Assembly (NCBI RefSeq): GCF_900103345.1
Contig: NZ_LT629702.1
Location: 3,100,001-3,164,000 of the forward strand
Length of the DNA: 64,000 nt
Reading direction: 5' to 3'
From: Pseudomonas azotoformans
Lineage (GTDB): Bacteria > Pseudomonadota > Gammaproteobacteria > Pseudomonadales > Pseudomonadaceae
Position numbers and translations under genes: made by a program
Part shown: positions 18,898-31,010 of the stretch, in pieces
How the letters are laid out: each line of letters starts with the position of its first letter
Position numbering within the stretch: position 1 is the stretch's first letter
Notes under the pieces: generated by a model
Seen by the model: only the letters and a program-made list of their open reading frames with translations
Database searches by the model: none
What the model was told of the DNA's origin: nothing

Positions 18898-18924
18898 AAT
18901 GTGGCGGTGAAGGAGAGATTCGAA
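18898..18924. repeat. left attachment site (copy of tRNA-Ser 3' end)
   Basis: This is a 27-base identical copy of 30917-30943. It contains the tRNA acceptor 3' strand and T-arm up to GAGAGATTCGAA, after which the two sites diverge. It marks the left edge of the island. Confidence 0.88.
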
Positions 18925-18977
18925 TTAACCACACCTACGGGCCTTTAAACCCCGTATTTAGGGGCTTACAGCTTGGA

Positions 18978-19012
18978 TAGTAGTACAATCGAGTAGTACA
19001 ATTCGCTGTACC
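18978..19012. promoter_or_regulatory. integrase arm-type direct repeats, left
   Basis: AGTAGTACAATCG is followed by AGTAGTACAATTC and a third GTACC-containing copy, giving tandem copies of AGTAGTACAA. The same doublet appears near the right end at 30846-30867. The position between att and the int start fits arm sites that may also regulate int. Confidence 0.6.
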
Positions 19013-19036
19013 ACTCTTCTCTCCCAGCGTGACCCC

Positions 19037-20530
19037 ATGGCCGATAACCTGATCCAGAAACGCGGCGAATCCACATGGTATTGCAGACTTGCTGTACCTG
19101 CTGATGTCCGGGCGGCGATGGGCGGCAAGACCGTTCTCATCCGGTCACTACAGACCGGCCTACGCTCCGAAGCCATGGAACGCCGCTTGGTGGTACTAGC
19201 CGAATGGAAGGCGCAGATTGCACAGGCCAGAGGGAAACGGGCTGCCCGTGGGGATACGTGGAAAGACCCCGTAGCAAACGTGGCTCATGGATTTGCACAG
19301 GCCACACGCAAGCTCAAAACAGACGTTGCCCTCGGGGAGACTGACGAACCATTGGCGTTCGCCCCTGAGGATATTGAAGCGCTTTACCGGGGGCTCTTCG
19401 ACGACTCGCCAGAGGGCAAGAAACGCCGGGAGAAGGCAGACCGGGTTTACGCCATGACAGGCATGGATGGCGAAGTGGCTAACATCGACTTTGCTACAGA
19501 AATGGCGCAGCAGCTCATGGCGAAGGTGTTTGGTGCAACCCAAGGACTCTCCTCAATGGAAGAGACCGAGGCACTACAGATACTAGCGGCGCCAGATGCC
19601 CATAAACCAAAGTCACCCATCACGCCCGCAAGACTCAAGGCATTTCGAGAATTCCGGGAGAGCCGTGGGGGCGCCCCGAAACACGTAGACCAGCAAGTTG
19701 GGAAGATGGAACGCCTGACAGACTTCCTGAAGAAAGACTCGCTGCCTCTGACCTTCGACACCGTAGACGTTTGGTTGAAATCCCTAGACCGGGCACCCGC
19801 GACACTGAGTCAGTATTTGATGGCTGGCACTGCGTTCTGGAAATGGGCGATGAAGTACGATTCGGGTTGGCGCGAGATGTATCAGGACAAGGTGAATCCG
19901 TTCGTTGGTCACGATCTGCCAAAGGGTGGGGGCGCAGACACAGCAGGTAAGGACAGGGAAATCTACACTCGGGCTGATACTCTCAAGCTGCAACGTGCAG
20001 CGCTGGATAATGATGATCAGCCGCTTGCAGATTTGATTGCTTTGGGCTGGTACACGGGGGCCAGGATTGAAGAGCTTTGCAGACTGACCACGGACAGCGT
20101 GATTACCGTCGATGGTGTCCAGTGTTTTGACTTCCCCAAGAGCAAAAGCAAGGCGAGTAAGCGTGTGGTACCGATTCATCCAAGCCTGTTGGCCGCTGTG
20201 GATCGACTCCGTAAGGACAGCACAGATACCTTCCTCATCCCAGCAGAGTCAGCAGATAAGTATGGCAAGCGGTCGCACGCAATCTCCAAAGCATTTGGCA
20301 GGTTACGTACAGCGGCAGGGTTCAGCAGACTGCATGTCTTTCACAGTTTTCGGCACACAGTTGTGACCGAGCTAATCAGGGCAGACGTGCCAGACGCACT
20401 GGCGAAAGAATTGGTAGGTCATGAGACGGGATCAGTTACCCATGATGTTTATTCGAAGGGTGCGTCCACAAAACAGAAGTTTGACGCTATATCGAAGCTG
20501 CCCACCATAGCCACGGGTTTGAAGCTGTGA
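19037..20530 (+). CDS. int: tyrosine-type site-specific integrase
   Basis: A 497-residue phage/island integrase. The N-terminal part (LIQKRGESTWYCRLAVPADV) resembles the DUF6538 arm-binding domain. The C-terminal catalytic domain shows the Arg in YTGARIEELCRL near residue 341, a Lys in KSKASKRVV, HSFRH with His and Arg near 434-438, GHETGSVTH near 460 and the nucleophile Tyr in HDVYSKG near 470. It recombines attP with the tRNA-Ser 3' end. It is transcribed away from the left att, next to the arm repeats. It lies at the island end far from the intact tRNA, which is less usual. No excisionase was recognised. Confidence 0.95.
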   Translation: MADNLIQKRGESTWYCRLAVPADVRAAMGGKTVLIRSLQTGLRSEAMERRLVVLAEWKAQIAQARGKRAARGDTWKDPVANVAHGFAQATRKLKTDVALGETDEPLAFAPEDIEALYRGLFDDSPEGKKRREKADRVYAMTGMDGEVANIDFATEMAQQLMAKVFGATQGLSSMEETEALQILAAPDAHKPKSPITPARLKAFREFRESRGGAPKHVDQQVGKMERLTDFLKKDSLPLTFDTVDVWLKSLDRAPATLSQYLMAGTAFWKWAMKYDSGWREMYQDKVNPFVGHDLPKGGGADTAGKDREIYTRADTLKLQRAALDNDDQPLADLIALGWYTGARIEELCRLTTDSVITVDGVQCFDFPKSKSKASKRVVPIHPSLLAAVDRLRKDSTDTFLIPAESADKYGKRSHAISKAFGRLRTAAGFSRLHVFHSFRHTVVTELIRADVPDALAKELVGHETGSVTHDVYSKGASTKQKFDAISKLPTIATGLKL

Positions 20531-20708
20531 GGAAAATCTAAAAACGGACGTGCGCTAACATTAAGTTTAAAGTATAACTATGAAAAGATGGCCTAGCGCC
20601 ATTATTTTCTGAGGTTGCCGAGATCCACAGCTGGCATGGAGGCTTCCAAGGACGGGATTTTAGCTAGGGGCAATGTGAGCATTGCTGGCACCTGAGGACA
20701 ACTGCATC

Positions 20709-21536
20709 ATGGCAATAAATTTCGACGTCGTAATTGAGACACCTGACTACGAAGTAGATATGAAAACCGGCCTTGACACCTTACAAGGTGTTTCTGACGC
20801 GACAAGAACCATTGCGGAAACGCTGCTCACTGGCAATGTTCCCCAGCGTAAAAACAGTAAGAGCAACGTTCGGACTATGCTAAAAAAAACGTTCGAGGGT
20901 TCTTACGGTCAAATCTTCAGCTTGAACATTTCTGATGAAGAGCTGAAAAAGGAATATCGAAAAATTGGCAATACGGCTTTCGCAGAGCTGATGGGCTTTT
21001 TTATGAACGAAGCTCTAGACTTAGAAACTAAGGAACTATCCGCAAAAGCGGAAAAAATAGTTGAGAGTCTCGGTGATAATGCTGAAAGGCTTGTCAGACA
21101 ACTACGAACTTCAATCATGAAAGACGCACATGAAGTTTCGAAAAAATTCGGATATGACGTCAAGGTTAACTTTAGAAAAAACTCAGTACAAAAAATATTG
21201 ATTGCCGAATTTGACGAAACCACGGCACACGCATTGGAGGCCGTACGCTCGGATGTTCGAGAAACTATCATCGCAGCCGTACGACGATTCAACACTAATA
21301 CCGGAAATGGACGTTTACAAATTCAGGACGAAGAAGAGACCATTGCATTCGGCTTCGAAAAAGTCTACAGGGAAGTTAGATTTGCCACCAAAAAAAGATT
21401 CTCAGAAAATCTAGACTACAACAATGGAATTGAGATAGAACGTTGGAAATATTTGGAAATCGAGGTATATCCCATTAAACGCTTTGACGACAAGGTCGTT
21501 AAATATGTAGTAGCCGGACTCCATGAAGACCAATAG
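20709..21536 (+). CDS. unknown protein, partner of AbiC-like gene
   Basis: A 275-residue soluble protein with no recognised motif. It starts MAINFDVVIETPDYEVDMKT and has long charged helices in the middle (LETKELSAKAEKIVESLG) and a beta-rich C terminus. The DNA is strongly AT-rich, which points to recent acquisition. The ATG at 20709 is used because TGAGGA lies 12 bases upstream. Its 3' end overlaps the next gene by 14 bases, so the two are coupled. Context suggests the sensor or regulatory half of a two-gene phage-defence unit, but this is inference from neighbourhood only. Confidence 0.65.
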   Translation: MAINFDVVIETPDYEVDMKTGLDTLQGVSDATRTIAETLLTGNVPQRKNSKSNVRTMLKKTFEGSYGQIFSLNISDEELKKEYRKIGNTAFAELMGFFMNEALDLETKELSAKAEKIVESLGDNAERLVRQLRTSIMKDAHEVSKKFGYDVKVNFRKNSVQKILIAEFDETTAHALEAVRSDVRETIIAAVRRFNTNTGNGRLQIQDEEETIAFGFEKVYREVRFATKKRFSENLDYNNGIEIERWKYLEIEVYPIKRFDDKVVKYVVAGLHEDQ

Positions 21537-22260
21537 ATACATCTTCATCGCGATCACCCTTATTGCAATCGTCTGCTTGTCATACGTGCTTAATTTTTAC
21601 GTAAAGTTGAGCTATGTAATCTCAGATGAGCCAGAAGCATGGGGACAGCTAGGAGACTTTGTAGGCGGCTTAATCAACCCTATTTTAAGCTTCATGTCGC
21701 TGTTATTCATCATAAAATCTCTCAGTCTCCAGAATGAAGCGAACGTAGGTTTGAGAGAAGAAGTAAAAAACACTAGAAAGACTGAAAAGCTGCGTTCATT
21801 TGAAACCCAGCTATTCCACATGATCGCTTCTCAAAGAGAATTATTCAACTCCTTAAAAGTTAACGATATATCATATCAAACCTTTTCCAAAAAAATGGGA
21901 GTTGAAGCGGTTATCGTTATTGAAACAGAAGTGGAACGCTTGAGAGAAAGCTTTGATGTGGACATTGTCAACGCATACTTAGAGGCGGCTGATCCGACCG
22001 ATCAAATTTATGGCCTCACAAGGATTTTTTACAACATCGTAAAGCTCACTTCCGAAAAATTAAGCGACGCCAATGAGTTCTCCGCCGAGGATAGAAAGTC
22101 CCACTATCTTACATTGATAAACTTTACAGATTTTTCTCTACTACGACTCATTATGCTGTCCGCTCAATTTACAGGACTTCCGCCTACAGAATATCTTAAA
22201 TCAAACCAAGAATTTAGCTCAACACTAAAAGAAGTTGGACTAAACTACAGTCTCTACTGA
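21523..22260 (+). CDS. putative phage abortive-infection protein, putAbiC-like
   Basis: A 245-residue protein with a hydrophobic helix at residues 6-28, then WGQLGDFVGGLINPILSF at 40-57 leading into a second helix to about 66. A coiled charged stretch and a helical cytoplasmic domain follow. The W-x-x-GDFxGGxxNPxxSF signature between two helices is that of the putAbiC family. FETQLFHMIASQRELFNSLK follows, as in relatives. These proteins are linked to aborted phage infection, probably by acting at the membrane after sensing. It overlaps the preceding gene, and both are AT-rich island cargo. Confidence 0.65.
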   Translation: MKTNRYIFIAITLIAIVCLSYVLNFYVKLSYVISDEPEAWGQLGDFVGGLINPILSFMSLLFIIKSLSLQNEANVGLREEVKNTRKTEKLRSFETQLFHMIASQRELFNSLKVNDISYQTFSKKMGVEAVIVIETEVERLRESFDVDIVNAYLEAADPTDQIYGLTRIFYNIVKLTSEKLSDANEFSAEDRKSHYLTLINFTDFSLLRLIMLSAQFTGLPPTEYLKSNQEFSSTLKEVGLNYSLY

Positions 22261-22649
22261 ATGACAACTCACACCAAAGCATACCGTGCATTCAACATTA
22301 ATAATCATAGAAGTTAAATTTTCGCTGAAAAAAACAACTGACTTTCGTTTTGACTTGAGTTTCACCGTTAGAAAATAATCTGGTAGCCCACCTGCACCTC
22401 TGGACTGTCCCCAGAATTCCGGTGCAGGCGAGCACAGGGGATTGTACAGCAACGTATTTTTGGTGGTCATTCGACAGGCGCTTAACATCGAACGACAGGG
22501 GCTTATCCAAACCCTTGAAATCCAGGAATAACCTGACACGCCGTGGCGCTCTGAGACCCCCTACAAGCCACGCTATAGCAACCTGAATCACATGGCATCA
22601 GAGACGACAAAGCCCGGTCAAGGCGGGCTGGAAGGCTGTCTCAGCAACG
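22261..22649. other. intergenic region with nested stem-loop
   Basis: No gene is seen in 389 bases. Near 22391-22428, CCTGCACC pairs with GGTGCAGG, and an inner CTGG/CCAG pair nests inside. It may act as a terminator-like barrier for the AbiC-like pair, although there is no T tract. Confidence 0.35.
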
Positions 22650-23192
22650 TTAATTCTTCATGGCACGTTGCACGGTGCTCAGACTTACACCAAGGGCCTT
22701 TGCTACCTTGCGGAAAGATGCGCCCTCTTCTGCCATTGCCTTGCGAATGGCTTCGTCATCTACCGTCTTCACACGTCCCTTGTAGACACCTGCTGCCTTG
22801 GCCTTTTGAATGCCCTCTGCCTGACGCTCACGAATCAACGCACGCTCGAACTGAGCAACACTGCCCAGCAGACCCAGCATTAGCTCCTGCATAGGGTTGG
22901 CTTCGCCGGTGAAGTGAAGTTGTTCCTTATGGAACGAGACAGCCACACCCCGACTGATCAATCCCTTTACAAGGGCCAGCAGATCTTCCAGTGAGCGGGC
23001 TAACCGATCAATGCTGTGGACGTGGAGAACGTCGCCCTTGCGAACATGGCGAAGCATTGCCTGTAGTTCGGGGCGGTCAGTGTTGGCCGCTGACACCTTG
23101 TCTGTGAACACTTCGTCCAGGGCAACGCCTTCCAGCTGGCGAGCGGTGTTTTGATCGGTGGATGAAACTCGAATGTAGCCGATGCTCGCCAT
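22650..23192 (-). CDS. serine recombinase, resolvase/invertase family
   Basis: A 180-residue small serine recombinase. MASIGYIRVSSTDQNTARQL places the catalytic Ser at residue 10. DKVSAANTDRPEL, GDVLHVHSIDRLAR and the MQELMLGLLGSVAQFERALI helix E region follow, and the C-terminal helix-turn-helix is SFRKVAKALGVSLSTVQRAM. This is the normal length for Tn3-type resolvases and invertases. The start at 23192 has AGAGGGGAG just upstream; seven codons further up is an alternative. Repeated TGTATTCA elements in front of it look like its own crossover or regulatory site. Confidence 0.9.
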   Translation of the reverse strand: MASIGYIRVSSTDQNTARQLEGVALDEVFTDKVSAANTDRPELQAMLRHVRKGDVLHVHSIDRLARSLEDLLALVKGLISRGVAVSFHKEQLHFTGEANPMQELMLGLLGSVAQFERALIRERQAEGIQKAKAAGVYKGRVKTVDDEAIRKAMAEEGASFRKVAKALGVSLSTVQRAMKN

Positions 23193-23204
23193 TGCTCTCC
23201 CCTC

Positions 23205-23325
23205 TGTATTCATTTAACTCTAGAGGTTTGAGTATGATCGTATTCATTAACAAAAACAAACCCTAATGAACACGACCCTTGTATTCACCGACGAGCGGTC
23301 TGAAGGGTATACCCAAATGAATACA
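23205..23325. promoter_or_regulatory. res-like array of TGTATTCA elements
   Basis: GTATTCATT-like 9-mers occur at 23205, 23240 and 23280 in one direction and, inverted, at 23265 and 23315. The elements at 23205 and 23315 are perfect 11-base complements. The pairs form dyads of roughly 34 and 46 bases, like the subsites of a resolvase res site. The array sits directly upstream of the recombinase start. Confidence 0.5.
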
Positions 23326-23397
23326 ATCTAAAAATTGATCCATTGACCCTCATCAAGCTATGGTGGCGATTTAACATACGCAGCAGGAATGATTTAG

Positions 23398-23922
23398 ATG
23401 AATCTCTTGTTACAAGATCCAGGCAATGACCTAGTTTACATTGAGCACAACGGAAAACGTCGCGGACCGTACGCATGTGCTTTCAGCACTACCCCCCTTA
23501 GGCTTTTCCAGGTCGAGCTGGAAATCACCGAAGGCGACAAGATCGTTCGCAAGGTGCACGGACAGGAATTCGTCTACACAATTAACGAGTTCGAATACTA
23601 CAGCGGTGGACACTCCCACTCTCGTTTTGACCCCCATTACGAGCTGACAATTACAAAGGATTCCGCCCTCCCCAAGCCGCAGCCTTCCGTCACCACCAAT
23701 AACATCAACATCCACGGATCGACCGGCATCCAGATTGGCGACCACAACGTCCAGAATCTTGAAGTAGCCCTGAAAGAGGTGCTTACCTCAATAGACAACG
23801 CGGACGCCCCTAAGGAAGAGCGAGAGGAAGCGAAGAACAAGCTCAATGCCTTCCTTGCACACCCACTAGTTTCTGCCGCTGTTGGTGCAACACTTCCCGT
23901 GGCTCTCGGCCTACTGAGCTGA
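23398..23922 (+). CDS. RHIM/amyloid-motif protein of unknown role
   Basis: A 174-residue protein. Residues 1-95 form a beta-rich domain of unknown family (DLVYIEHNGKRRGPYACAFS at its start). Residues 100-119 read TNNINIHGSTGIQIGDHNVQ, in which IQIGDHN matches the RIP homotypic interaction motif core I/V-Q-I/V-G-x-x-N that forms amyloid-like assemblies. Residues 121-155 are a charged helix, and 156-174 a hydrophobic helix (HPLVSAAVGATLPVALGLL) that could insert in membrane. Bacterial proteins with such motifs have been linked to cell-death signalling in phage defence. The effector or partner is not obvious. It is divergent from the recombinase. Confidence 0.65.
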   Translation: MNLLLQDPGNDLVYIEHNGKRRGPYACAFSTTPLRLFQVELEITEGDKIVRKVHGQEFVYTINEFEYYSGGHSHSRFDPHYELTITKDSALPKPQPSVTTNNINIHGSTGIQIGDHNVQNLEVALKEVLTSIDNADAPKEEREEAKNKLNAFLAHPLVSAAVGATLPVALGLLS

Positions 23923-24247
23923 TTACCTCTCCCTTTCGGCCCTTCGGGGCCGGAGGCTATCGCCGCCTTGGCCTTGCAGGAAAACGGTGGTTCCGGCTCA
24001 GAACGGGCGTTTTAGTGTGAAAACCTCGATTTGGGCGTCAGCATGGACCCGAGCTAAGCAAATTAACGTTGCCCCCTACGGAAACAGAGGGCTTCAGACG
24101 TGCCACAAAGTCAATCTTAGAAACAACGTCCACATCGCGCACTGGTTTCGAGTGGGTTTTGTCCAGGTTATCAAGAGGTTTCCAAAACGGTATGACGTTA
24201 CGGTGCCAGCATGGATAATCATGCCTATGACCAAGGAGCACTGGCGA
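23923..24247. other. intergenic region with UUCG hairpin
   Basis: CGGCCC-TTCG-GGGCCG at 23937-23952 is a perfect six-base-pair hairpin closed by the very stable UUCG loop, 15 bases after the RHIM gene. It lacks a T tract, so it may be a stabiliser or a weak terminator. The rest of the 325 bases carries no convincing gene, although a frame is open ahead of 24248. Confidence 0.4.
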
Positions 24248-24655
24248 ATGGAACGATTGAACGGGTGGCAAAGGCTGTGGGTTGCGGTTGCAGTAATCCT
24301 GCTTGCCGCGATTACCCTAGGCGGGGTGGATTCCTACCCTAGCCAATCCGAGGTCAAAGACAGGTATCAGGCACGACTAAAGTTTTGGGGCGACTGCAAC
24401 CTCTACTATCAAGGCCACAAGCTAGCACCAGAAACGCCACCATCACTCTGCCTCGACTTGAAAAAAGATGATGCGGTGATGACCTACAGGAAGACGGCAA
24501 TCGAATACAGCGATGAAGTAGAGCGATTGCCTGTTAGGCGCCTAGGTTGGGCTGGGACCATTCTAGGTATATGGGCAATCACTAACCTCGTCATTTTCAG
24601 CGTATTTACCACCACAAGGTGGATATACCGGGGCTTTCGCCCCAAGGCTGCATAA
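24248..24655 (+). CDS. small two-TM membrane protein, unknown
   Basis: A 135-residue protein. The N-terminal helix is WVAVAVILLAAITLGGV and the C-terminal helix is WAGTILGIWAITNLVIFSVF. Between them is a loop of about 70 residues with two cysteines (DCNLYY and SLCLDL), which could form a disulfide outside the cytoplasm. The end is basic (RWIYRGFRPKAA), consistent with a cytoplasmic C terminus. AAGGAG 9 bases upstream fixes the ATG at 24248; the frame runs open upstream without a better start. No family is recognised. Confidence 0.6.
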   Translation: MERLNGWQRLWVAVAVILLAAITLGGVDSYPSQSEVKDRYQARLKFWGDCNLYYQGHKLAPETPPSLCLDLKKDDAVMTYRKTAIEYSDEVERLPVRRLGWAGTILGIWAITNLVIFSVFTTTRWIYRGFRPKAA

Positions 24656-24680
24656 CCGTCTACATCTCACGCTGTATGGC

Positions 24681-25025
24681 CTACGAGACTTGGATCAGCG
24701 GACTATCACCAATCTGCACCACGTAAGCGATGGTAGCCAATTTGGCGTGGTGAGCAGCCTGCCTCAAGGCTTGGTCTACTTTCTTGGCAATGGGTGCCCG
24801 GTTCAATTCATCTTGGTAGGAGGTAGTCCAGACTGAGTAACCAGTTACTCGCTGCCAGCCTTGTTTGCGGAGTGACATTTCAAACCTCAAGCGCTGGAGG
24901 GCCGTAGCTTCCTTTAGCTGGGATATCGCCGTGCAATGCACCATTGAAATCTTCTCTGTGATGGACGCTTGCCCTAAGGGTATAGGACTACCCACAGCGC
25001 CGCTGTAAAGTTCAACTGCATTCAT
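24681..25025 (-). CDS. unknown small protein
   Basis: A 114-residue protein, soluble and mixed alpha/beta by eye, with LRFEMSLRKQGWQRVTGYSV and IAKKVDQALRQAAHHAKLAT. It has no signal peptide or known motif. GTAGGGGG lies about 8 bases before the ATG, which supports translation. It is divergent from the small secreted protein at 25056, leaving only 30 bases between the two starts, so their promoters must overlap each other's coding region. Confidence 0.55.
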   Translation of the reverse strand: MNAVELYSGAVGSPIPLGQASITEKISMVHCTAISQLKEATALQRLRFEMSLRKQGWQRVTGYSVWTTSYQDELNRAPIAKKVDQALRQAAHHAKLATIAYVVQIGDSPLIQVS

Positions 25026-25055
25026 TGAACCCCCTACACTGTGGAAGGACCCATC

Positions 25056-25346
25056 ATGAAATTCATCTGCACATTCACATTTCTACTGCTCGCCCAAGCA
25101 GCATATGCGGCTGACTCGGCTCCTGTCCCTGATCCCTACGGTGGCCCTGATAAGCGTCCAGAGAAAAGTGAGAATGTCACTGCCTACTTGAACGAAGACG
25201 GTACCTCTACCACCACGGCAGTGATCATTTACGCCGATGGTCATAAGGAATTCTGTATTACCCAAATGGTACGGCCTACAGCGGACCCACGGCGGTGGAA
25301 AGTCACCGGCAAGAAGTGCACACGAATTCTCTCGTATCTCAAATAA
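25056..25346 (+). CDS. small secreted protein, unknown
   Basis: A 96-residue protein with a clear signal peptide: MKFICTFTFLLLAQAAYAAD, with cleavage likely after AYA. The mature part is about 77 residues, with YLNEDGTSTTTAVIIYADGH and two cysteines (KEFCITQ and KKCTRIL) that may form a disulfide in the periplasm. AAGGA 7 bases upstream supports the ATG at 25056. No family is recognised. Confidence 0.6.
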   Translation: MKFICTFTFLLLAQAAYAADSAPVPDPYGGPDKRPEKSENVTAYLNEDGTSTTTAVIIYADGHKEFCITQMVRPTADPRRWKVTGKKCTRILSYLK

Positions 25347-25922
25347 CGGACTGCTGGGTGGACGACTTCGCCAATAGGGGCAGATAACCTCATAGCTTCC
25401 GCTATCGGATAATGTCAGTCTCTGTGCACAGATCAGCCAAGGGCTGATACACGGTCAAGACGGATCAGGATCACAGCGGCGCTGTAAAGTCATTCACCTT
25501 AACGCTTGTCTCCACCTCTCAGTGGACGTATCGCCACAGGACTTCCAGTCCAACCGAAGTCATACATAAAGAAATCACCACAGAACCGCTCTTACCTTTG
25601 ATCTTGGATTCTTGTGCAGAATCGAATGCGCTCGCATTCAGTAGTTTTCCGTCAGCGCTCGCTGACAACTGTTGCCCATCACCTTCGGTGCAACAGATCA
25701 AGAGCAAAAGCTTTTTGGGTTGTGGTGATGCTGGATGTATTTATTGGTGGGCTGATCCGGAATCGGGACGATACGACTAACGGCAATCCACGTGTGAGTC
25801 CACCGTAGTGCTCCGCACTGTGCGACAGCACTGCAACGTAACAATCGATAACTCCGTTATCCCGGCAAAAACACCACAACACCCACCCCCTTAGTATTGT
25901 TCGCGCGGTTGGGGTGATCTGG
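25347..25922. other. 576-base non-coding region with a cluster of hairpins
   Basis: No convincing protein gene is seen. Three compact stem-loops follow one another: GAATGCG/CGCATTC at 25624-25639, GTCAGCG/CGCTGAC at 25651-25666, and GTTGC...GCAAC with an inner CACC/GGTG at 25671-25694. The density of short perfect stems suggests a structured RNA or a protein-binding DNA site. Confidence 0.4.
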
Positions 25923-26807
25923 TCAGTAGCCCAGATTGGCGATGGATTCTTCCACCTCGGCGTAGTGCTCGGGCCTTAGCCATCCCTGATCCTCAACGTA
26001 GTCAAGGAACGGGTTGCTACCAGTCGGTTCCAGGGAATACCCATCGTAGGAATCGACTTTGCCCATCACTGCGTCTGGCATACGGCCAAGGCCGTTGGCC
26101 TGTTCCTCTGCACGCTCAATCAACACGCTGATGGGTTCCGACCCGACCTCAGGGATTGCCAGCTTCAGAATGTGCGAGCGTGCAGCCTTCCTTTGCTTTG
26201 CGAATTCAGTTAGGTACTGGTCGCCCTCGAATTGGTTGGGCGAACCTTCATCGACAACCAGCTCAACACCACAGGCAGCCATGTATTCATCGACGACGTC
26301 TTGCAACCGCTGGGCAAGGGTCACGGCGCACTCGCGAATCTTTCGGTTGCATTCCACAGGGGCGCGGGCATCAAACCAATCCATTAGGAATACGGCAACC
26401 TCACCTCTTGAAGCCGCAATCTCCCGGATACGCATACGCACACGGCTCGCACAGTCTTTGTCGTAGCCACCTTCGCGCTTGCCTTCTTGGGAGTTCCATG
26501 TGGATCCATAGCATTCAAACATGATGCTGTGAAACAGATAATCCTTGATGCCAAGTGGGCTGACAGCCAAGGGGTAGGCTTTCGCAACTGCACGACCGAA
26601 AGGGTCGTTATATGACTTTTGTCCCTTTACTACACCAGAAGTGAGACGCCGGACGTGATGTTCCGTTACACCTAAGCGCTGCTCGATCTTCCGGCGTGAA
26701 ATGCCCTGCCGATGCAGCTCAACAATCTGTTCATCAATGGTGGGGGCAATAGTGTCTTGGTTGGCAGCGATTGTGCCGGGGGTCAAACGAAGGGTAAACG
26801 TACGCAT
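25923..26807 (-). CDS. HTH-containing protein of unknown function
   Basis: A 294-residue protein. Residues 24-52 (IDEQIVELHRQGISRRKIEQ, then RLGVTEHHVRRL) form a homeodomain-like helix-turn-helix of the kind found in transposase and resolvase N termini. The rest has no recognised domain; it includes FHSIMFECYGSTWN and a helical middle (CAVTLAQRLQDVVDEYMAAC). It could be an island regulator or a replication or partition-like DNA-binding protein. It stands alone between two non-coding regions. No clear ribosome-binding site is visible in front of the ATG at 26807. Confidence 0.6.
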   Translation of the reverse strand: MRTFTLRLTPGTIAANQDTIAPTIDEQIVELHRQGISRRKIEQRLGVTEHHVRRLTSGVVKGQKSYNDPFGRAVAKAYPLAVSPLGIKDYLFHSIMFECYGSTWNSQEGKREGGYDKDCASRVRMRIREIAASRGEVAVFLMDWFDARAPVECNRKIRECAVTLAQRLQDVVDEYMAACGVELVVDEGSPNQFEGDQYLTEFAKQRKAARSHILKLAIPEVGSEPISVLIERAEEQANGLGRMPDAVMGKVDSYDGYSLEPTGSNPFLDYVEDQGWLRPEHYAEVEESIANLGY

Positions 26808-27138
26808 ACTGTTCGGCTCCTGTGTGGTAGTTCAATTCATAGGCGAATGCCTCGGGTAAGTTGTTGGGTCATTTTCCAGACGGCAAGAAACCAACGCCTG
26901 ACGTTGCACTGGGGCAAGTCGAGATCGTTCAGTTCTGGCTTTCTGGAAAGCGGCTAATATGCATTTTAAGACCATAGTTGTCAAGCAACTTTACACTTTC
27001 AAGCCCCTGTAGTGCGATATGAGAGCCTTACTCTTGGCAGGCAGCCCAAACTTCGCCTTACAGCATACGTGACGACTAAGAGGCCAGCAGAGGCTTACAA
27101 ATGCAACTTCGCCCCCCCCCTTTCTTAGCCAACGCCAC
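26808..27138. other. intergenic region
   Basis: No gene is seen in these 331 bases. It has an inverted repeat TTTCCAGA (26872) / TCTGGAAA (26941) in the likely promoter area of the HTH gene, and a run of nine or more C near 27110. Confidence 0.35.
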
Positions 27139-27444
27139 TCAGTGACGAGAGTTCAGATAGACAATGAAAACGATCACGATAATGATGATCAACAATACTT
27201 TGTTCTTGTATTGATCCTCGTTGCGAATAGCCTGGTACGCTTCCACGTCGGACTTCCCAGATTCTTTGTGCTCCAGTATTCGAGCGATCTTCTTATCAAT
27301 TCTTTTGTTATGCCTACTATTCTGCATGGCGACAAGAAACCAAAACACTAGCCACAACCCGACTGTAGGTATGCAAAGGAGGAGATGCAGAATGTGATTG
27401 GTGGTCTTCTTCTGGCCGTTCAGCACGTAGATTCGTTCGTTCAT
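27139..27444 (-). CDS. small two-TM membrane protein
   Basis: A 101-residue protein. KKTTNHILHLLLCIPTVGLW runs into a first membrane segment, followed by a basic charged loop (NSRHNKRIDKKIARILEHKE) and a second segment IIIIVIVFIVYL at the C terminus. AGGTGAG 8 bases upstream favours the ATG at 27444 over the GTG four codons earlier. It is divergent from the XRE regulator and shares its palindromic operator region, so that regulator may control it. It could be the membrane effector or immunity part of the neighbouring module, but no family is certain. Confidence 0.6.
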   Translation of the reverse strand: MNERIYVLNGQKKTTNHILHLLLCIPTVGLWLVFWFLVAMQNSRHNKRIDKKIARILEHKESGKSDVEAYQAIRNEDQYKNKVLLIIIIVIVFIVYLNSRH

Positions 27445-27487
27445 GACTGTGCTCACCTAATAAACACTGGAGTGTCGAGCGGACAAA

Positions 27488-27521
27488 ATATCTGAAATTC
27501 AGATATCTGAAAAGCAGATAT
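27488..27521. promoter_or_regulatory. palindromic operator of the XRE regulator
   Basis: ATATCTGAAATTCAGATAT is a perfect 19-base palindrome (27488-27506). A second dyad, ATATCTG-N5-CAGATAT, shares its right half (27503-27521). This gives three half sites in the gap between two divergent genes, the usual arrangement for an autoregulating XRE protein. Confidence 0.65.
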
Positions 27522-27554
27522 AGGTTGAGCAGCTAATCTCCATAGCTGACGACC

Positions 27555-27806
27555 ATGCCTAAAACGATCTACAGACATGAGCACGCTGTGCTCTTGTCAC
27601 TGCTGAAGAAATACCGAGACGAGGCAGGTCTGACCCAGGTCCAGTGCTCAAAAGCGCTGGGGCGCCCGCAATCCTTCATGAGTGACGTTGAGAGTGGGAC
27701 GCGCCGCCTGGATGTAGTACAGGTCCGCGATCTGTGCAACGTCCTTGGAGTTAAGCTTACGAAACTGGCAATTGACCTTGAAGAACTACTAGCAGAGGAA
27801 GGATGA
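27555..27806 (+). CDS. XRE-family HTH regulator
   Basis: An 83-residue protein that is almost entirely one lambda-repressor-like HTH: LLKKYRDEAGLTQVQCSKAL, GRPQSFMSDVESGTRRLDVV, and VRDLCNVLGVKLTKLA. Small regulators of this sort act as controllers for restriction-modification and abortive systems. The operator palindromes lie just upstream. It precedes the nuclease-like gene at 27932 by 125 bases and probably times its expression. Confidence 0.85.
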   Translation: MPKTIYRHEHAVLLSLLKKYRDEAGLTQVQCSKALGRPQSFMSDVESGTRRLDVVQVRDLCNVLGVKLTKLAIDLEELLAEEG

Positions 27807-27931
27807 GGCTATACATACGACCAAACGTATCCTCGAAGTGTTAGCTATGAGCTTCATCACATTTTCGAGGGTGACTGGCATTAACGTCGGTCAAAACCAA
27901 GGGCGATGACTACCGAGAAGGCTGCTGACGC

Positions 27932-28843
27932 ATGATTGACGAAATGATCGCTATCGAAGATCCAGTAGATTGGCTGCTGGGGACGGATGAATTCCATCAC
28001 AGTCTCTATGCCGCAGCACTCCGAAACTTGGAAGACGTAGATAATAAGCTCCGCTTCAACAACTTCGCCTACGCACTGCGGGAGCTGACCAACTCTATTC
28101 TGATGAAACGGGCCCCCAAGGCAGAGGTCCTGAAGTGTCCTTGGTACAAAGACGAGATTCAGCTGCCTCACATTAGAGATGGGGTCACGAAGATCCAGCA
28201 CGCTCGGTACGTGGTTCAGGGAGGACTTTCAGACGAATATGTTGCAAAGGAGCTGAAGCTTGATCTGTCGCCAGAACGCAAGGCGATCCGAGACTCGCTA
28301 ACCGAGTTGAGCAAGTACACGCACGTAGAAGAGGCAACCTTCAACCTTCCTGGTCAGGAGGTCAAAATGCTTGTCGAAAAATCACTTGATGCCTTACGAG
28401 GGTTGGGAATGGCGATGGTTAACTGTCGCAGCCGCATAGCTCACAGCCTTTATGAAGCGATCGAAGACCAGGCTATCTACGAGGTCGTTTCTGACTCTCT
28501 CGAGGCGTTGGATAGCGTAGCTCATCATTATTCGCTGGAAGACGTCAGTGTCAATATCAGCGGGGTAGAGCGGATCACCCACGACACTGTTCATTTATTT
28601 GCAGCCGGGTTTATAAATGTTCAACTGCAGTGGGGATCTAACTCGGATGTTCGGCGCGGTGATGGCCACTTGCAAGATGATTCGTTTGAGTTTCGCTGCA
28701 GCCTCACCTGCTCTGTCGAGGACCCTACCGGTGATTCATTAGTAATGGAGGATGACTCTATTATCGTGGATACGAAGGCTTGGGGGCAGCGGGAGGACGA
28801 GTGGGACCATGTAAGTACGATTGACTCTGAGCCCGCGACCTAA
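27932..28843 (+). CDS. predicted pPIWI-associating-nuclease-like protein
   Basis: A 303-residue protein. Conserved-looking stretches are RFNNFAYALRELT (41-53), VQGGLSDEYV (95-104), LSKYTHVEE (126-134) and LQWGSNSDVRRGDG (232-245). From memory this pattern matches the predicted pPIWI-associating nuclease families, found beside prokaryotic PIWI modules and in defence islands; no PIWI gene is present here. AGAAGG about 10 bases upstream supports the ATG. It is followed after about 100 bases by the SEC-C/nuclease-like gene in the same direction. Activity is not shown, and no canonical nuclease motif is certain by eye. Confidence 0.55.
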   Translation: MIDEMIAIEDPVDWLLGTDEFHHSLYAAALRNLEDVDNKLRFNNFAYALRELTNSILMKRAPKAEVLKCPWYKDEIQLPHIRDGVTKIQHARYVVQGGLSDEYVAKELKLDLSPERKAIRDSLTELSKYTHVEEATFNLPGQEVKMLVEKSLDALRGLGMAMVNCRSRIAHSLYEAIEDQAIYEVVSDSLEALDSVAHHYSLEDVSVNISGVERITHDTVHLFAAGFINVQLQWGSNSDVRRGDGHLQDDSFEFRCSLTCSVEDPTGDSLVMEDDSIIVDTKAWGQREDEWDHVSTIDSEPAT

Positions 28844-28945
28844 ACCAACTGGCCCCAGCCGTTCTGGCTAGACGGGCAGCTTCGACACCTGCTGCAAGCG
28901 GCCATTTCGTGGCGCTCAACTCCACCTGACGGGAAGCCTGTGCGG

Positions 28946-30541
28946 ATGCGCAACAAGCCTGGTCGAAATGATCCCTGCCCTTGCGGTAGCGGCCGCAAGC
29001 TCAAAAAATGTCATGGGTCTGTCGACGGTCTCGGGCCGAATGTACCGCGCATGTACGAGCAGATGCAGATGAAACTCGCTCATCATGAAGCCCGTGAGTT
29101 TCAAAGGCGTGAGCAGCAGGGCCTTGGTAAGTCGATCATTTCCACTAAGTTCCATGATCACAGAGTCATAGCCGTCGGTAACACGATGCATTTCTCACAG
29201 AATTGGAAAACGTTTCACGACTTCCTGAACGACTACCCGAGGATCGTCTTGGGCAGAGAATGGTGGACGTCAGAGGTAAGCAAGCCTCCAGAAGAGCGAC
29301 ATCGCATTCTCACCTGGGCCGTCCGCAGCTCTGAGCATTCGAAAGCTCACATGGAACAGACTGGGCCAGGTGTTGCTCAGCCGATGACGGGGGCCATAGG
29401 TGCCTATATGCGCTTCGCATATGACCTCTACAGCCTGAAGCACGCCATTGAGGTCGAGAAATTGCTTATCGACCGAATCAAATGCGCGGAGAACTTCCCC
29501 GGCGCGTTGTATGAAGTGCGAGTCGCTGCCGCCCTGCTTCGGGCAGGCTTCAGCCTGCAACCCCAAGATGAAACTGACAGACGTAGTACCCACGTTGAGT
29601 TCATTGCCACTGACGCTAAGTCCGGTGCGATCTACGCCGTTGAGGCCAAGCGACGAGAAGGCAGGCGGATGAAAATCAACAGACAAATGAATCGCGCTTT
29701 GAGCAAAAAGTCGGATCATCCTCGCATTGTTTTCATTGACACAAATGACGAGCGACTGGAACTGGGCAGGGGCCAACCTAATCCAGTAGCGCTTGTAGAG
29801 GCTGAAAACCTCTTAAAGCTATATGAGCGAGATCCGGTTGGGCAAACGCTTCCGCAGGCGTATGTCATAGTCACGTACGAGCCAGAGGAGCATCACCTTG
29901 ATGCTATTGATCTGCCTTCTGGAGTGCTGCTATGGGGCTTTCACCTCGAAGATCTTCACCCTGGGCCCAAAACCCTGCTTCAGCAGGTCAAAACTAGGCG
30001 TCAGCATGCGCCAGTGTTTTCGCTACTGGAGTCCATGCAGAAGCACCGGCGCATTCCCACTACGTTCGACGGAGAGACTGAGGCGTTCTCAGACGGAAGT
30101 TCCAAGACACGGCTACAGGTTGGTCAGCGGATGGAAGTGCCAGCACCTAACGGAACACAGATAGAGGCTACGGTAGAGAGTTGCGTCGTTATACCAACGT
30201 GGAGAGAGGCAGCGTGTCTCGTTCGCACGGACGATCAACAGCGCTTCATAGTCAAGATTCCGTTGACGGAAGATGAACTAAAGGCTCACATCCAGCACCC
30301 TAAGACCTTTTTCGGCGTTATTGATAAAAATGCTGGCCGTTCGTCTCCGAAGACCGGCTTGGACTGGTTCGACTTCTTATGGGAAACATACTCGAGCAGC
30401 ACAAAAGAGAAGCTGATTGAGCTCATGGGGCATGCACCTGACGTTGAACGATTGAAGGAGATGACCCGAGAGGATTTGGCCGACGAGTACTGCGCTCGAA
30501 TGGCAAGCGCAATGATGACGCCCCAAATGGAAAAGATGTGA
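28946..30541 (+). CDS. SEC-C zinc motif plus PD-(D/E)XK-like nuclease protein
   Basis: A 531-residue protein. The N terminus is a complete SEC-C motif, PGRNDPCPCGSGRKLKKCHG, with Cys11, Cys13, Cys22 and His23 as zinc ligands. Around residues 186-236, GALYEVRVAAALLRAGF, then HVEFIATDAKSGAIYAVEAK, shows the E...(E/D)-x(n)-ExK spacing of PD-(D/E)XK nucleases. The C-terminal 250 residues are unrecognised. ATG at 28946 is preferred; GTG two codons earlier is possible. It is likely the nucleic-acid-acting effector of the XRE/nuclease-like module. It is the last gene of the island before the right end. Confidence 0.65.
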   Translation: MRNKPGRNDPCPCGSGRKLKKCHGSVDGLGPNVPRMYEQMQMKLAHHEAREFQRREQQGLGKSIISTKFHDHRVIAVGNTMHFSQNWKTFHDFLNDYPRIVLGREWWTSEVSKPPEERHRILTWAVRSSEHSKAHMEQTGPGVAQPMTGAIGAYMRFAYDLYSLKHAIEVEKLLIDRIKCAENFPGALYEVRVAAALLRAGFSLQPQDETDRRSTHVEFIATDAKSGAIYAVEAKRREGRRMKINRQMNRALSKKSDHPRIVFIDTNDERLELGRGQPNPVALVEAENLLKLYERDPVGQTLPQAYVIVTYEPEEHHLDAIDLPSGVLLWGFHLEDLHPGPKTLLQQVKTRRQHAPVFSLLESMQKHRRIPTTFDGETEAFSDGSSKTRLQVGQRMEVPAPNGTQIEATVESCVVIPTWREAACLVRTDDQQRFIVKIPLTEDELKAHIQHPKTFFGVIDKNAGRSSPKTGLDWFDFLWETYSSSTKEKLIELMGHAPDVERLKEMTREDLADEYCARMASAMMTPQMEKM

Positions 30542-30871
30542 GCCATTATCCGGGTATAGCTCCACAATACTTTAGCGCCTGAGAACGGGGGGGCTTCCTC
30601 GCCCTTCAATGAGCATGGAATGTCCCAACGAGTCAGCTCATGCCATTTATCACAACGGCTGAACAACCGTTTTCCGCAGTCGAGACTGGTCATTCCAAAT
30701 GCCGTCTCTGGGCCGAACGAATTCGTACGCGAGTGGCTGATTTTGGCCGATTCCTGCCAGTCAGGAGTAAAACCAAAAACGTTCTCGACGATGGATTGGA
30801 TCGCCTTAGCTGCATAGGTCGAGAGGGAATGCGACGTAGAGCGAGAGTAGTACAATTGAGTAGTACAAACG
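30542..30871. other. right-end non-coding region of island
   Basis: No gene is supported in this stretch. Near 30846 it carries the AGTAGTACAA repeats that mirror those next to the integrase. Confidence 0.45.
30846..30867. promoter_or_regulatory. integrase arm-type direct repeats, right
   Basis: AGTAGTACAATTG followed by AGTAGTACAA has the same sequence and spacing as the repeats at 18978, about 50 bases inside the right attachment site. Confidence 0.6.
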
Positions 30872-30914
30872 AAAAAGCCCGCGAACTCTAAGTAACTGAA
30901 TTCACGGGCTTTTC
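30872..30914 (-). terminator. terminator for tRNA-Ser carried by the island
   Basis: AAAAGCCCGTGAA pairs with TTCGCGGGCTTTTTC on the minus strand just beyond the tRNA 3' end. It replaces the original terminator that now lies at 18842. Confidence 0.75.
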
Positions 30915-30916
30915 TA

Positions 30917-30943
30917 AATGTGGCGGTGAAGGAGAGATTCGAA
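30917..30943. repeat. right attachment site in tRNA-Ser
   Basis: Identical over 27 bases to 18898-18924. It overlaps the 3' end of the intact tRNA-Ser, so integration keeps the tRNA functional. Confidence 0.88.
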
Positions 30944-31010
30944 CTCTCGATACAATTTCTTGTATACACACTTTCCAGGCGTGCTCCTTAAGCCACTCGG
31001 ACACTTCACC
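30921..31010 (-). tRNA. tRNA-Ser (anticodon GGA)
   Basis: The 90-base minus-strand gene starts GGTGAAGTGTCCGAGTGGCT and ends CTCCTTCACCGCCA with an encoded CCA. The anticodon arm is CACGC-CTGGAAA-GTGTG, giving GGA. A long variable arm (TATACAAGAAATTGTAT) marks it as a class II serine tRNA, and TTCGAAT forms the T loop. Its 3' part is the integration target of the island to its left. Confidence 0.95.

What the first reader, a model, noticed from the sequence alone, without database searches (positions are those of the whole stretch)
27488..30541. XRE-controlled module with a pPIWI-associating-nuclease-like protein and a SEC-C/PD-(D/E)XK protein
Three co-directional genes (27555, 27932, 28946) lie behind a palindromic operator. 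The small XRE protein resembles controller proteins. The second gene has the RFNNFAYALRELT, VQGGL and LSKYTHVEE pattern recalled for predicted pPIWI-associating nucleases, but no PIWI gene is nearby. The third joins a zinc SEC-C motif to an E...E-x-ExK nuclease-like core. This combination, without PIWI, helicase or methyltransferase, is not a system I can name. It sits in a mobile defence-like island.
Basis: partly seen in the sequence, partly recalled or inferred. Interest (0 to 1): 0.78.

Follow-up and report, generated by a model that had tools for sequence, protein, structure and literature searches.

The report
Swappable defence-like genes in tRNA island
Three neighbouring genes at the end of a small mobile DNA island in a Pseudomonas genome are probably separate, interchangeable cassettes, two of them likely phage-defence genes, rather than parts of one new system.

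Summary
In detail: an XRE gene (27555-27806) behind a tandem palindromic operator, a pP_pnuc gene (27932-28843; PF18165+PF18166, PADLOC Aga_Nuclease) and a SEC-C gene with a conserved PD-(D/E)XK-type core (28946-30541).

The reading as one XRE-controlled module does not hold. The genes lie at the tRNA-Ser end of a 12.05-kb integrase island with exact 27-bp att repeats. Homology breaks between the genes: the pP_pnuc cassette (27827-28855) occurs without the SEC-C gene in P. reidholzensis; the SEC-C cassette (from 28896) occurs without pP_pnuc in two other Pseudomonas; operator+XRE relatives occur in 22 of 199 genus genomes (own included). The pP_pnuc/SEC-C pair was seen in one other place only (97%), behind a SIR2-like gene; in a third locus a different gene lies between the SIR2 and SEC-C blocks.

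PIWI was found in 1 of 39 pP_pnuc-bearing genomes or records, not beside the gene. Both families turn up separately at the P2-prophage defence hotspot and near Lamassu, Avs1a, CBASS or restriction genes (neighbours chosen by eye). Best reading: independent single-gene defence candidates. Defence is inferred; no activity was tested.

The parts
18898..18924 (.). att repeat at the integrase end, exact 27-bp copy of the tRNA-Ser 3' end
19037..20530 (+). tyrosine integrase (Phage_integrase + DUF6538) of the island
27488..27521 (.). tandem palindromic operator, two overlapping 19-bp palindromes, 34-67 nt before the XRE start
   Evidence: same site in 20 of 25 other XRE loci at 7 or fewer mismatches of 35
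27555..27806 (+). XRE regulator, 83 aa; with the operator forms its own cassette
27827..28855 (+). pP_pnuc cassette: about 105-nt leader plus gene 2
   Evidence: homology block with L004, where gene 3 is absent
27932..28843 (+). gene 2: pP_pnuc_1 + pP_pnuc_2 protein, 303 aa (PADLOC Aga_Nuclease, 254 bits)
28896..30717 (+). SEC-C/PD-(D/E)XK cassette: about 50-nt leader plus gene 3 and tail
   Evidence: homology blocks with L132 (28896-30717) and L133 (28897-30552), where gene 2 is absent
28946..30541 (+). gene 3: N-terminal SEC-C zinc motif, PD-(D/E)XK-like core (E190, E218, E233-x-K235), SH3/Tudor-like part near residues 388-439 (ATG numbering)
30917..30943 (.). att repeat inside the tRNA-Ser 3' end
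30921..31010 (-). tRNA-Ser (GGA), integration site

Best explanation
The region is the cargo end of a 12.05-kb tRNA-Ser integrative island (18898-30943). It holds three independently exchanged cassettes: (1) a self-regulating XRE repressor with its own tandem operator; (2) a stand-alone pP_pnuc protein that works without Argonaute; (3) a single-protein SEC-C/PD-(D/E)XK nuclease. Shown here: island ends, cassette borders, independent occurrence, conserved nuclease-type residues in gene 3, and repeated location of both families in or near defence loci. Inferred: gene 3 binds zinc through SEC-C and cuts nucleic acid with E190/E218/E233/K235, limiting incoming phage or plasmid DNA or killing the infected cell; gene 2 is a one-gene, probably cell-suicide, effector whose helical N-terminal domain (R50-E51, T130-H131) is the active part and whose C-terminal NTF2-like domain pairs or senses; the XRE represses itself and may dampen genes read through from its promoter.
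For: Island: exact 27-bp repeats, integrase next to one end, tRNA-Ser at the other; G+C 0.507 against 0.588 and 0.605 in the flanks. Cassette borders: window against L004, L104, L132, L133. Cassette swap: L104 and L133 share a SIR2 block (93%) and the SEC-C block (87%), but gene 2 in one is replaced by a 477-aa gene in the other. XRE cassette: DNA similarity to islands L185 and L186 begins at the operator (27484 and 27489) and ends at 27736 and 27749; relatives in 22 of 199 genus genomes, own included. Active site: E190, E218, E233, K235 identical in the 119 of 120 aligned relatives that cover them; these 120 are the best of 347 found. Defence context, gene 2: between the gpA-like replication gene and the portal in L118, and next to the portal in L121, the hotspot described in PMC9122126 (passages) and PMC9519451 (passages); near PD-Lambda-1 and LmuB (L136), PDC-M07A (L138), a SMODS CD-NTase (L121), a CAP12/PCTIR TIR protein (L143) and AbiE genes (L147). 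Gene 3: portal side of P2-type genes in L030 and L031; near Avs1a (L034), HEC-05 (L032), type I restriction (L148), Schlafen AlbA_2 (L132), PDC-S58 (L030). Neighbours were picked by eye, not at random.
Confidence: 0.66

Rival explanations
1. Two-gene defence system: gene 2 and gene 3 act together (gene 2 as sensor or toxin, gene 3 as nuclease), with the XRE as an optional local switch.
For: Co-directional with a 96-nt gap to the GTG start; the pair block 27827-30753 is kept at 97% in another element with a different upstream gene.
Against: Pair in 1 of 51 distinct other gene-2 loci and 1 of 13 distinct gene-3 loci, plus 0 of 4 further gene-3 loci. In two searches of 298 genus genomes gene 3 is in 5 and PF18165 in 4, together only in the window's own genome. 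Close relatives without the partner exist (84% for gene 2, 87% for gene 3).
Confidence: 0.15
2. XRE-controlled operon of restriction-modification controller type: the XRE holds genes 2 and 3 silent until the island enters a new host, then delays their expression.
For: Strong tandem operator, co-direction, no terminator-like site in between; weak match to PADLOC Control_protein (E 5.5e-5) and CapH (1.1e-5). Similar XREs lie upstream of McrBC (L189) and PD-T7-5 (L188).
Against: No methyltransferase family among the island proteins scanned; operator and XRE form a separate cassette, and none of 25 other XRE loci has gene 2 or 3 in its flanks. Of 7 XRE loci read over 16 kb, 2 have co-directional defence genes downstream, 2 a resolvase, 3 neither, though one of these (L191) has a type I restriction-like gene upstream. 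The other copy of the pair (L104) has no match to the XRE.
Confidence: 0.12
3. Genes 2 and 3 serve the island itself (DNA processing, excision or stability) and not phage defence.
For: Distal cargo position beside the att site; a resolvase gene beside one gene-3 relative (L134, by its sequence).
Against: The same families sit in unlike elements: P2-type prophages, an E. coli plasmid with tail genes, conjugative plasmids, other islands. In the clustering of neighbours (output partly cut) shared families were confined to groups of related elements, such as seven Bacteroidota loci; none ran through the whole set apart from gene 2 itself.
Confidence: 0.07

Closest known systems
Predicted pPIWI-associating nuclease families PF18165/PF18166; PADLOC Aga_Nuclease (PDLC02413)
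   Same: Near full-length match of gene 2 above the Pfam cut-offs; some relatives bear the name 'pPIWI-associating nuclease domain-containing protein' in their source records.
   Different: No PF02171 match in this genome, and 1 in 39 gene-2-bearing genomes or records, not beside gene 2; the predicted model shows no recognised nuclease core.
PD-(D/E)XK restriction-like endonucleases (fold matches PaqCI, XisH, AF2093, Kpn2I)
   Same: E190 on a helix, then E218, 14 residues, E233-x-K235 on strands, conserved throughout; weak fold matches within residues 186-368.
   Different: Joined to a SEC-C zinc motif and an SH3/Tudor-like part; no methyltransferase partner seen; no family above cut-off beyond SEC-C in Pfam and none above cut-off in NCBIfam, and only SEC-C pieces matched in PADLOC.
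P2-like prophage defence hotspot cargo (Rousset et al. 2022, PMC9122126, passages seen; PMC9519451, passages seen)
   Same: Relatives of gene 2 (L118, L121) and of gene 3 (L030, L031) lie on the portal side; in L118 the gpA-like gene bounds the other side.
   Different: SEC-C and PIWI do not occur in the main text of either paper. The window's own copy lies in a tRNA-Ser island, not a P2 prophage.
Modular defence hotspots in Pseudomonas genomic islands (PMC12629846, passages seen)
   Same: Defence genes clustered in exchangeable loci of islands.
   Different: SEC-C and PIWI do not occur in its main text; this island was not compared with those named there.
Long-B pAgo-associated nuclease bAgaN (PMC10620215, passages seen)
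   Same: Resemblance of name to PADLOC 'Aga'; bAgaN is a PD-(D/E)XK DNase.
   Different: No PD-(D/E)XK core was recognised in gene 2 and there is no PF02171 gene in the genome; homology to bAgaN was not tested.

Membership tests
pP_pnuc (PF18165/PF18166, Aga_Nuclease) | Both Pfam domains above gathering score | tested here: met
   106.6 and 93.2 bits against 26.3 and 25; Aga_Nuclease 254 bits
pP_pnuc (PF18165/PF18166, Aga_Nuclease) | Nuclease fold or active site | tested here: inconclusive
Argonaute/pPIWI system | PIWI gene beside it | tested here: not met
   No PF02171 in the host genome; 1 of 39 gene-2-bearing genomes or records has one, at G728:C6:13029, not beside gene 2. PF13032 (pPIWI-RE): 0 of 39, but no control rang, so this one is no proof
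PD-(D/E)XK nuclease (gene 3) | Conserved acidic/ExK active-site pattern | tested here: met
   E190, E218, E233, K235 in the 119 of 120 aligned relatives covering the sites
PD-(D/E)XK nuclease (gene 3) | Restriction-endonuclease-like fold | tested here: inconclusive
SEC-C zinc motif proteins (gene 3) | PF02810 with C-x-C...C-H ligands | tested here: met
   37.2 bits against 20.4; C11, C13, C22, H23 in the 95 of 120 aligned relatives that cover the motif; 25 lack that end
Restriction-modification controller protein (gene 1) | Small XRE protein with tandem palindromic operator | tested here: met
Restriction-modification controller protein (gene 1) | Linked methyltransferase and restriction gene | tested here: not met
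   No methyltransferase family among 20 window proteins scanned, which include the larger ORFs of the island
Conserved three-gene system | Adjacency kept across diverged genomes | tested here: not met

The most novel reading that the evidence does not exclude
Gene 3 founds an undescribed family of single-protein restriction-type defence nucleases (SEC-C zinc motif, PD-(D/E)XK core, SH3/Tudor-like reader domain) that need no methyltransferase partner and may read a phage DNA modification. Gene 2 is an Argonaute-free defence effector, so that the 'pPIWI-associating' label names a minority context of its family.
Probability: 0.3. Interest if true: 0.62.

Novelty: new member of a known kind. Interest (0 to 1): 0.4.

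Why it matters
It replaces a supposed three-part system by three exchangeable cassettes, which changes what to test: each gene alone. It marks two protein families that lie repeatedly in or near phage-defence loci but have, within the searches made here, no tested function that I found, and it indicates that a family named after Argonaute often occurs without it. The operator+XRE cassette, portable among Pseudomonas islands and found ahead of different cargo, is a small separate question.

Tried and rejected
One operon: rejected on adjacency and block borders. Argonaute partner: rejected for this genome. HEPN active site in gene 2: no conserved R-x4-6-H among its invariant columns (the motif is recalled); HEPN toxin structures appear only at Foldseek E 0.57-0.70, so a HEPN-like fold is not excluded. 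Solved relatives by sequence: none significant for gene 2 (best E 0.26-0.38), only SEC-C pieces for gene 3 at E under 0.01. Phage records: no match. Viral structure library for gene 2: nothing at E 0.001. Exact spacer of the pair in viral contigs: only the L104 contig. Exact operator pattern in viral contigs: none. Promoter-like sites: none on the + strand ahead of any of the three genes, and counts no higher than in shuffles. Literature: 0 papers for 'pPIWI-associating nuclease' and for pP_pnuc_1/PF18165/PF18166; 2 papers for SEC-C with antiphage, off the subject by title (listing only); 0 for SEC-C motif with nuclease and genomic island; passages only of PMC3702460, PMC6299218 and PMC10620215. 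The library lacks most subscription papers and all preprints, so this does not show that nothing is in print.

Rows dropped before counts: the own-genome loci and shorter copies of loci fetched again (L001, L002, L028, L123-L131, L140) were left out. L003/L139 (G029, a C-terminal piece of gene 2) did not pass the limit of 80 bits used. L136 duplicates L007 and L033 duplicates L032. Of the 76 viral loci, the 68 from L036 on match mainly through the SEC-C motif (28.4 to 42.1 bits for most) and are not counted as gene-3 relatives. 48 of the 52 gene-2 loci had at least 2.5 kb downstream, 12 of the 14 gene-3 loci at least 1.5 kb upstream. PADLOC, Pfam and PHROGs scans of neighbours used hand-picked genes; no random control was run. 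The genomes are draws from larger groups. The genus name Pseudomonas is taken from named relatives (a same-genus locus, L136, is the P. putida HAI-2 contig L007), not from a label of the window.
Full report
What is there. The finding's three genes exist at the stated places. Gene 1 (27555-27806) is an XRE protein (HTH_31 40.6 bits, HTH_3 31.6). Gene 2 (27932-28843) is a full pP_pnuc_1 + pP_pnuc_2 protein. Gene 3 (ATG 28946 to 30541) carries SEC-C and no other Pfam domain. In PADLOC gene 2 is Aga_Nuclease (254 bits), while gene 3 matches only through its SEC-C piece. The operator is real: two overlapping 19-bp palindromes at 27488-27506 and 27503-27521, with none in 100 shuffles. One detail of the finding is misplaced: the E-x-ExK residues (E233, K235) are in the third protein.

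The setting. A 27-bp exact repeat lies at 18898-18924 and at 30917-30943, the latter in the 3' end of a tRNA-Ser. A tyrosine integrase (19037-20530) sits just inside the first repeat. The stretch between is 12.05 kb, with G+C 0.507 against 0.588 and 0.605 outside. The genes of interest are the cargo furthest from the integrase.

Not one module. Comparing the window with related loci: L104 (a viral-collection contig, IMGVR_UViG_2513237292) matches 27827-30753 at 97%, that is, genes 2 and 3 but not the XRE; upstream there lies a 695-aa SIR2-like protein (SIR2_2 45.9 bits). L004 (Pseudomonas reidholzensis) matches 27827-28855 at 83%, gene 2 with its leader and nothing of gene 3. L132 and L133 (two same-genus genomes) match 28896-30717 and 28897-30552 at 88% and 86%, gene 3 with its leader and nothing of gene 2. 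L104 and L133 share a SIR2 block at 93% and the gene-3 block at 87%, while between them one has gene 2 and the other a different, 477-aa gene. In L133 the SIR2 reading frame is shorter (488 aa) and its domain score is just under the cut-off (22.3 against 24.5), so that copy may be broken. The picture is replacement of one cassette between two shared blocks.

Counts agree. In two searches of 298 genus genomes each, gene 3 is in 5 and PF18165 in 4, both sharing only the window's own genome; one further genome, G029, has a C-terminal piece of gene 2. In a draw of 398 genomes of the phylum, gene 3 is in 5 and PF18165 in 1, again sharing only the own genome. Among loci held, gene 3 accompanies gene 2 in 1 of 52 (51 without a duplicate), and gene 2 accompanies gene 3 in 1 of 14 (13 without a duplicate), both being L104; 4 wider gene-3 loci add none.

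The XRE is its own cassette. Relatives occur in 22 of 199 genus genomes, own included. Of 25 other XRE loci (L162 and L178 overlap), 20 have the tandem operator within 7 mismatches of a 35-base consensus, against a best of 14-17 mismatches in five letter shuffles of each locus; the 5 others (best 14-17) do not. In one search the site is seen just upstream of the start. DNA similarity to two other islands starts at the operator. None of the 25 holds gene 2 or 3 in its flanks. Of 7 read over 16 kb, one lies ahead of McrBC (L189) and one ahead of PD-T7-5 (L188); two lie ahead of a resolvase (L185, L186, with an RT-protease gene further on in L185); three have other downstream neighbours, one of them (L191) with a type I restriction-like gene upstream.

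Why defence. The P2 hotspot between the replication gene and the portal gene is a known store of phage-defence systems (PMC9122126, passages; PMC9519451, passages). A gene-2 relative lies between those two genes in L118, and another next to the portal in L121; gene-3 relatives lie on the portal side in L030 and L031, where the other border was not established. Other neighbours include PD-Lambda-1, LmuB, PDC-M07A, SMODS, a CAP12/PCTIR TIR protein and AbiE genes (gene 2), and Avs1a, HEC-05, type I restriction, AlbA_2 and PDC-S58 (gene 3). An E. coli IncY plasmid with tail and baseplate genes (P1-like by recall) carries a gene-2 relative between a Dam-family methyltransferase gene and baseplate genes, with a TnpB gene beside it. 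These neighbours were chosen by eye, and some loci show no such neighbours, so the argument is one of repeated association, not a measured enrichment.

Verdict. The most likely case is three separate cassettes in a mobile island, two of them single-gene defence candidates. The unsettled parts are biochemical: whether gene 2 cuts anything, and what gene 3 recognises.

Noticed in passing
23398-23922 (+): 174-aa protein with NNINIHGSTGIQIGDHNVQ and a hydrophobic C-terminus; Pfam RHIM at 16.4 bits, under the cut-off of 20. Possibly an amyloid-type signalling motif of a cell-death protein.
   Followed up: no
20682-22260 (+): Two overlapping genes near the integrase, 284 aa (sub-threshold DUF7946) and 245 aa without any Pfam match; also 25923-26807 (-) with only weak HTH matches.
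   Followed up: no
L133:7436-8869: 477-aa protein without Pfam or PADLOC match that takes the place of gene 2 between the SIR2 and SEC-C blocks.
   Followed up: partly
L010:9449-10786: Thermosipho relative of gene 2 with an N-terminal extension holding RNHFEH, HEPN-like by recall; L147 (Bradyrhizobium) has another long N-terminal extension.
   Followed up: partly
L188, L189: XRE relatives with the same tandem operator lie ahead of PD-T7-5 and of McrBC.
   Followed up: partly
L162, L175, L178, L179: A diverged XRE group has a different palindrome, TTTGGGATAATCCCAAA or close to it, at a similar distance.
   Followed up: no
L144, L145: Two E. coli plasmids (typed IncY and IncHI1B) carry a gene-2 relative next to an RdgC and Dam-family methyltransferase region; L144 has baseplate and tail genes on the other side.
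   Followed up: partly
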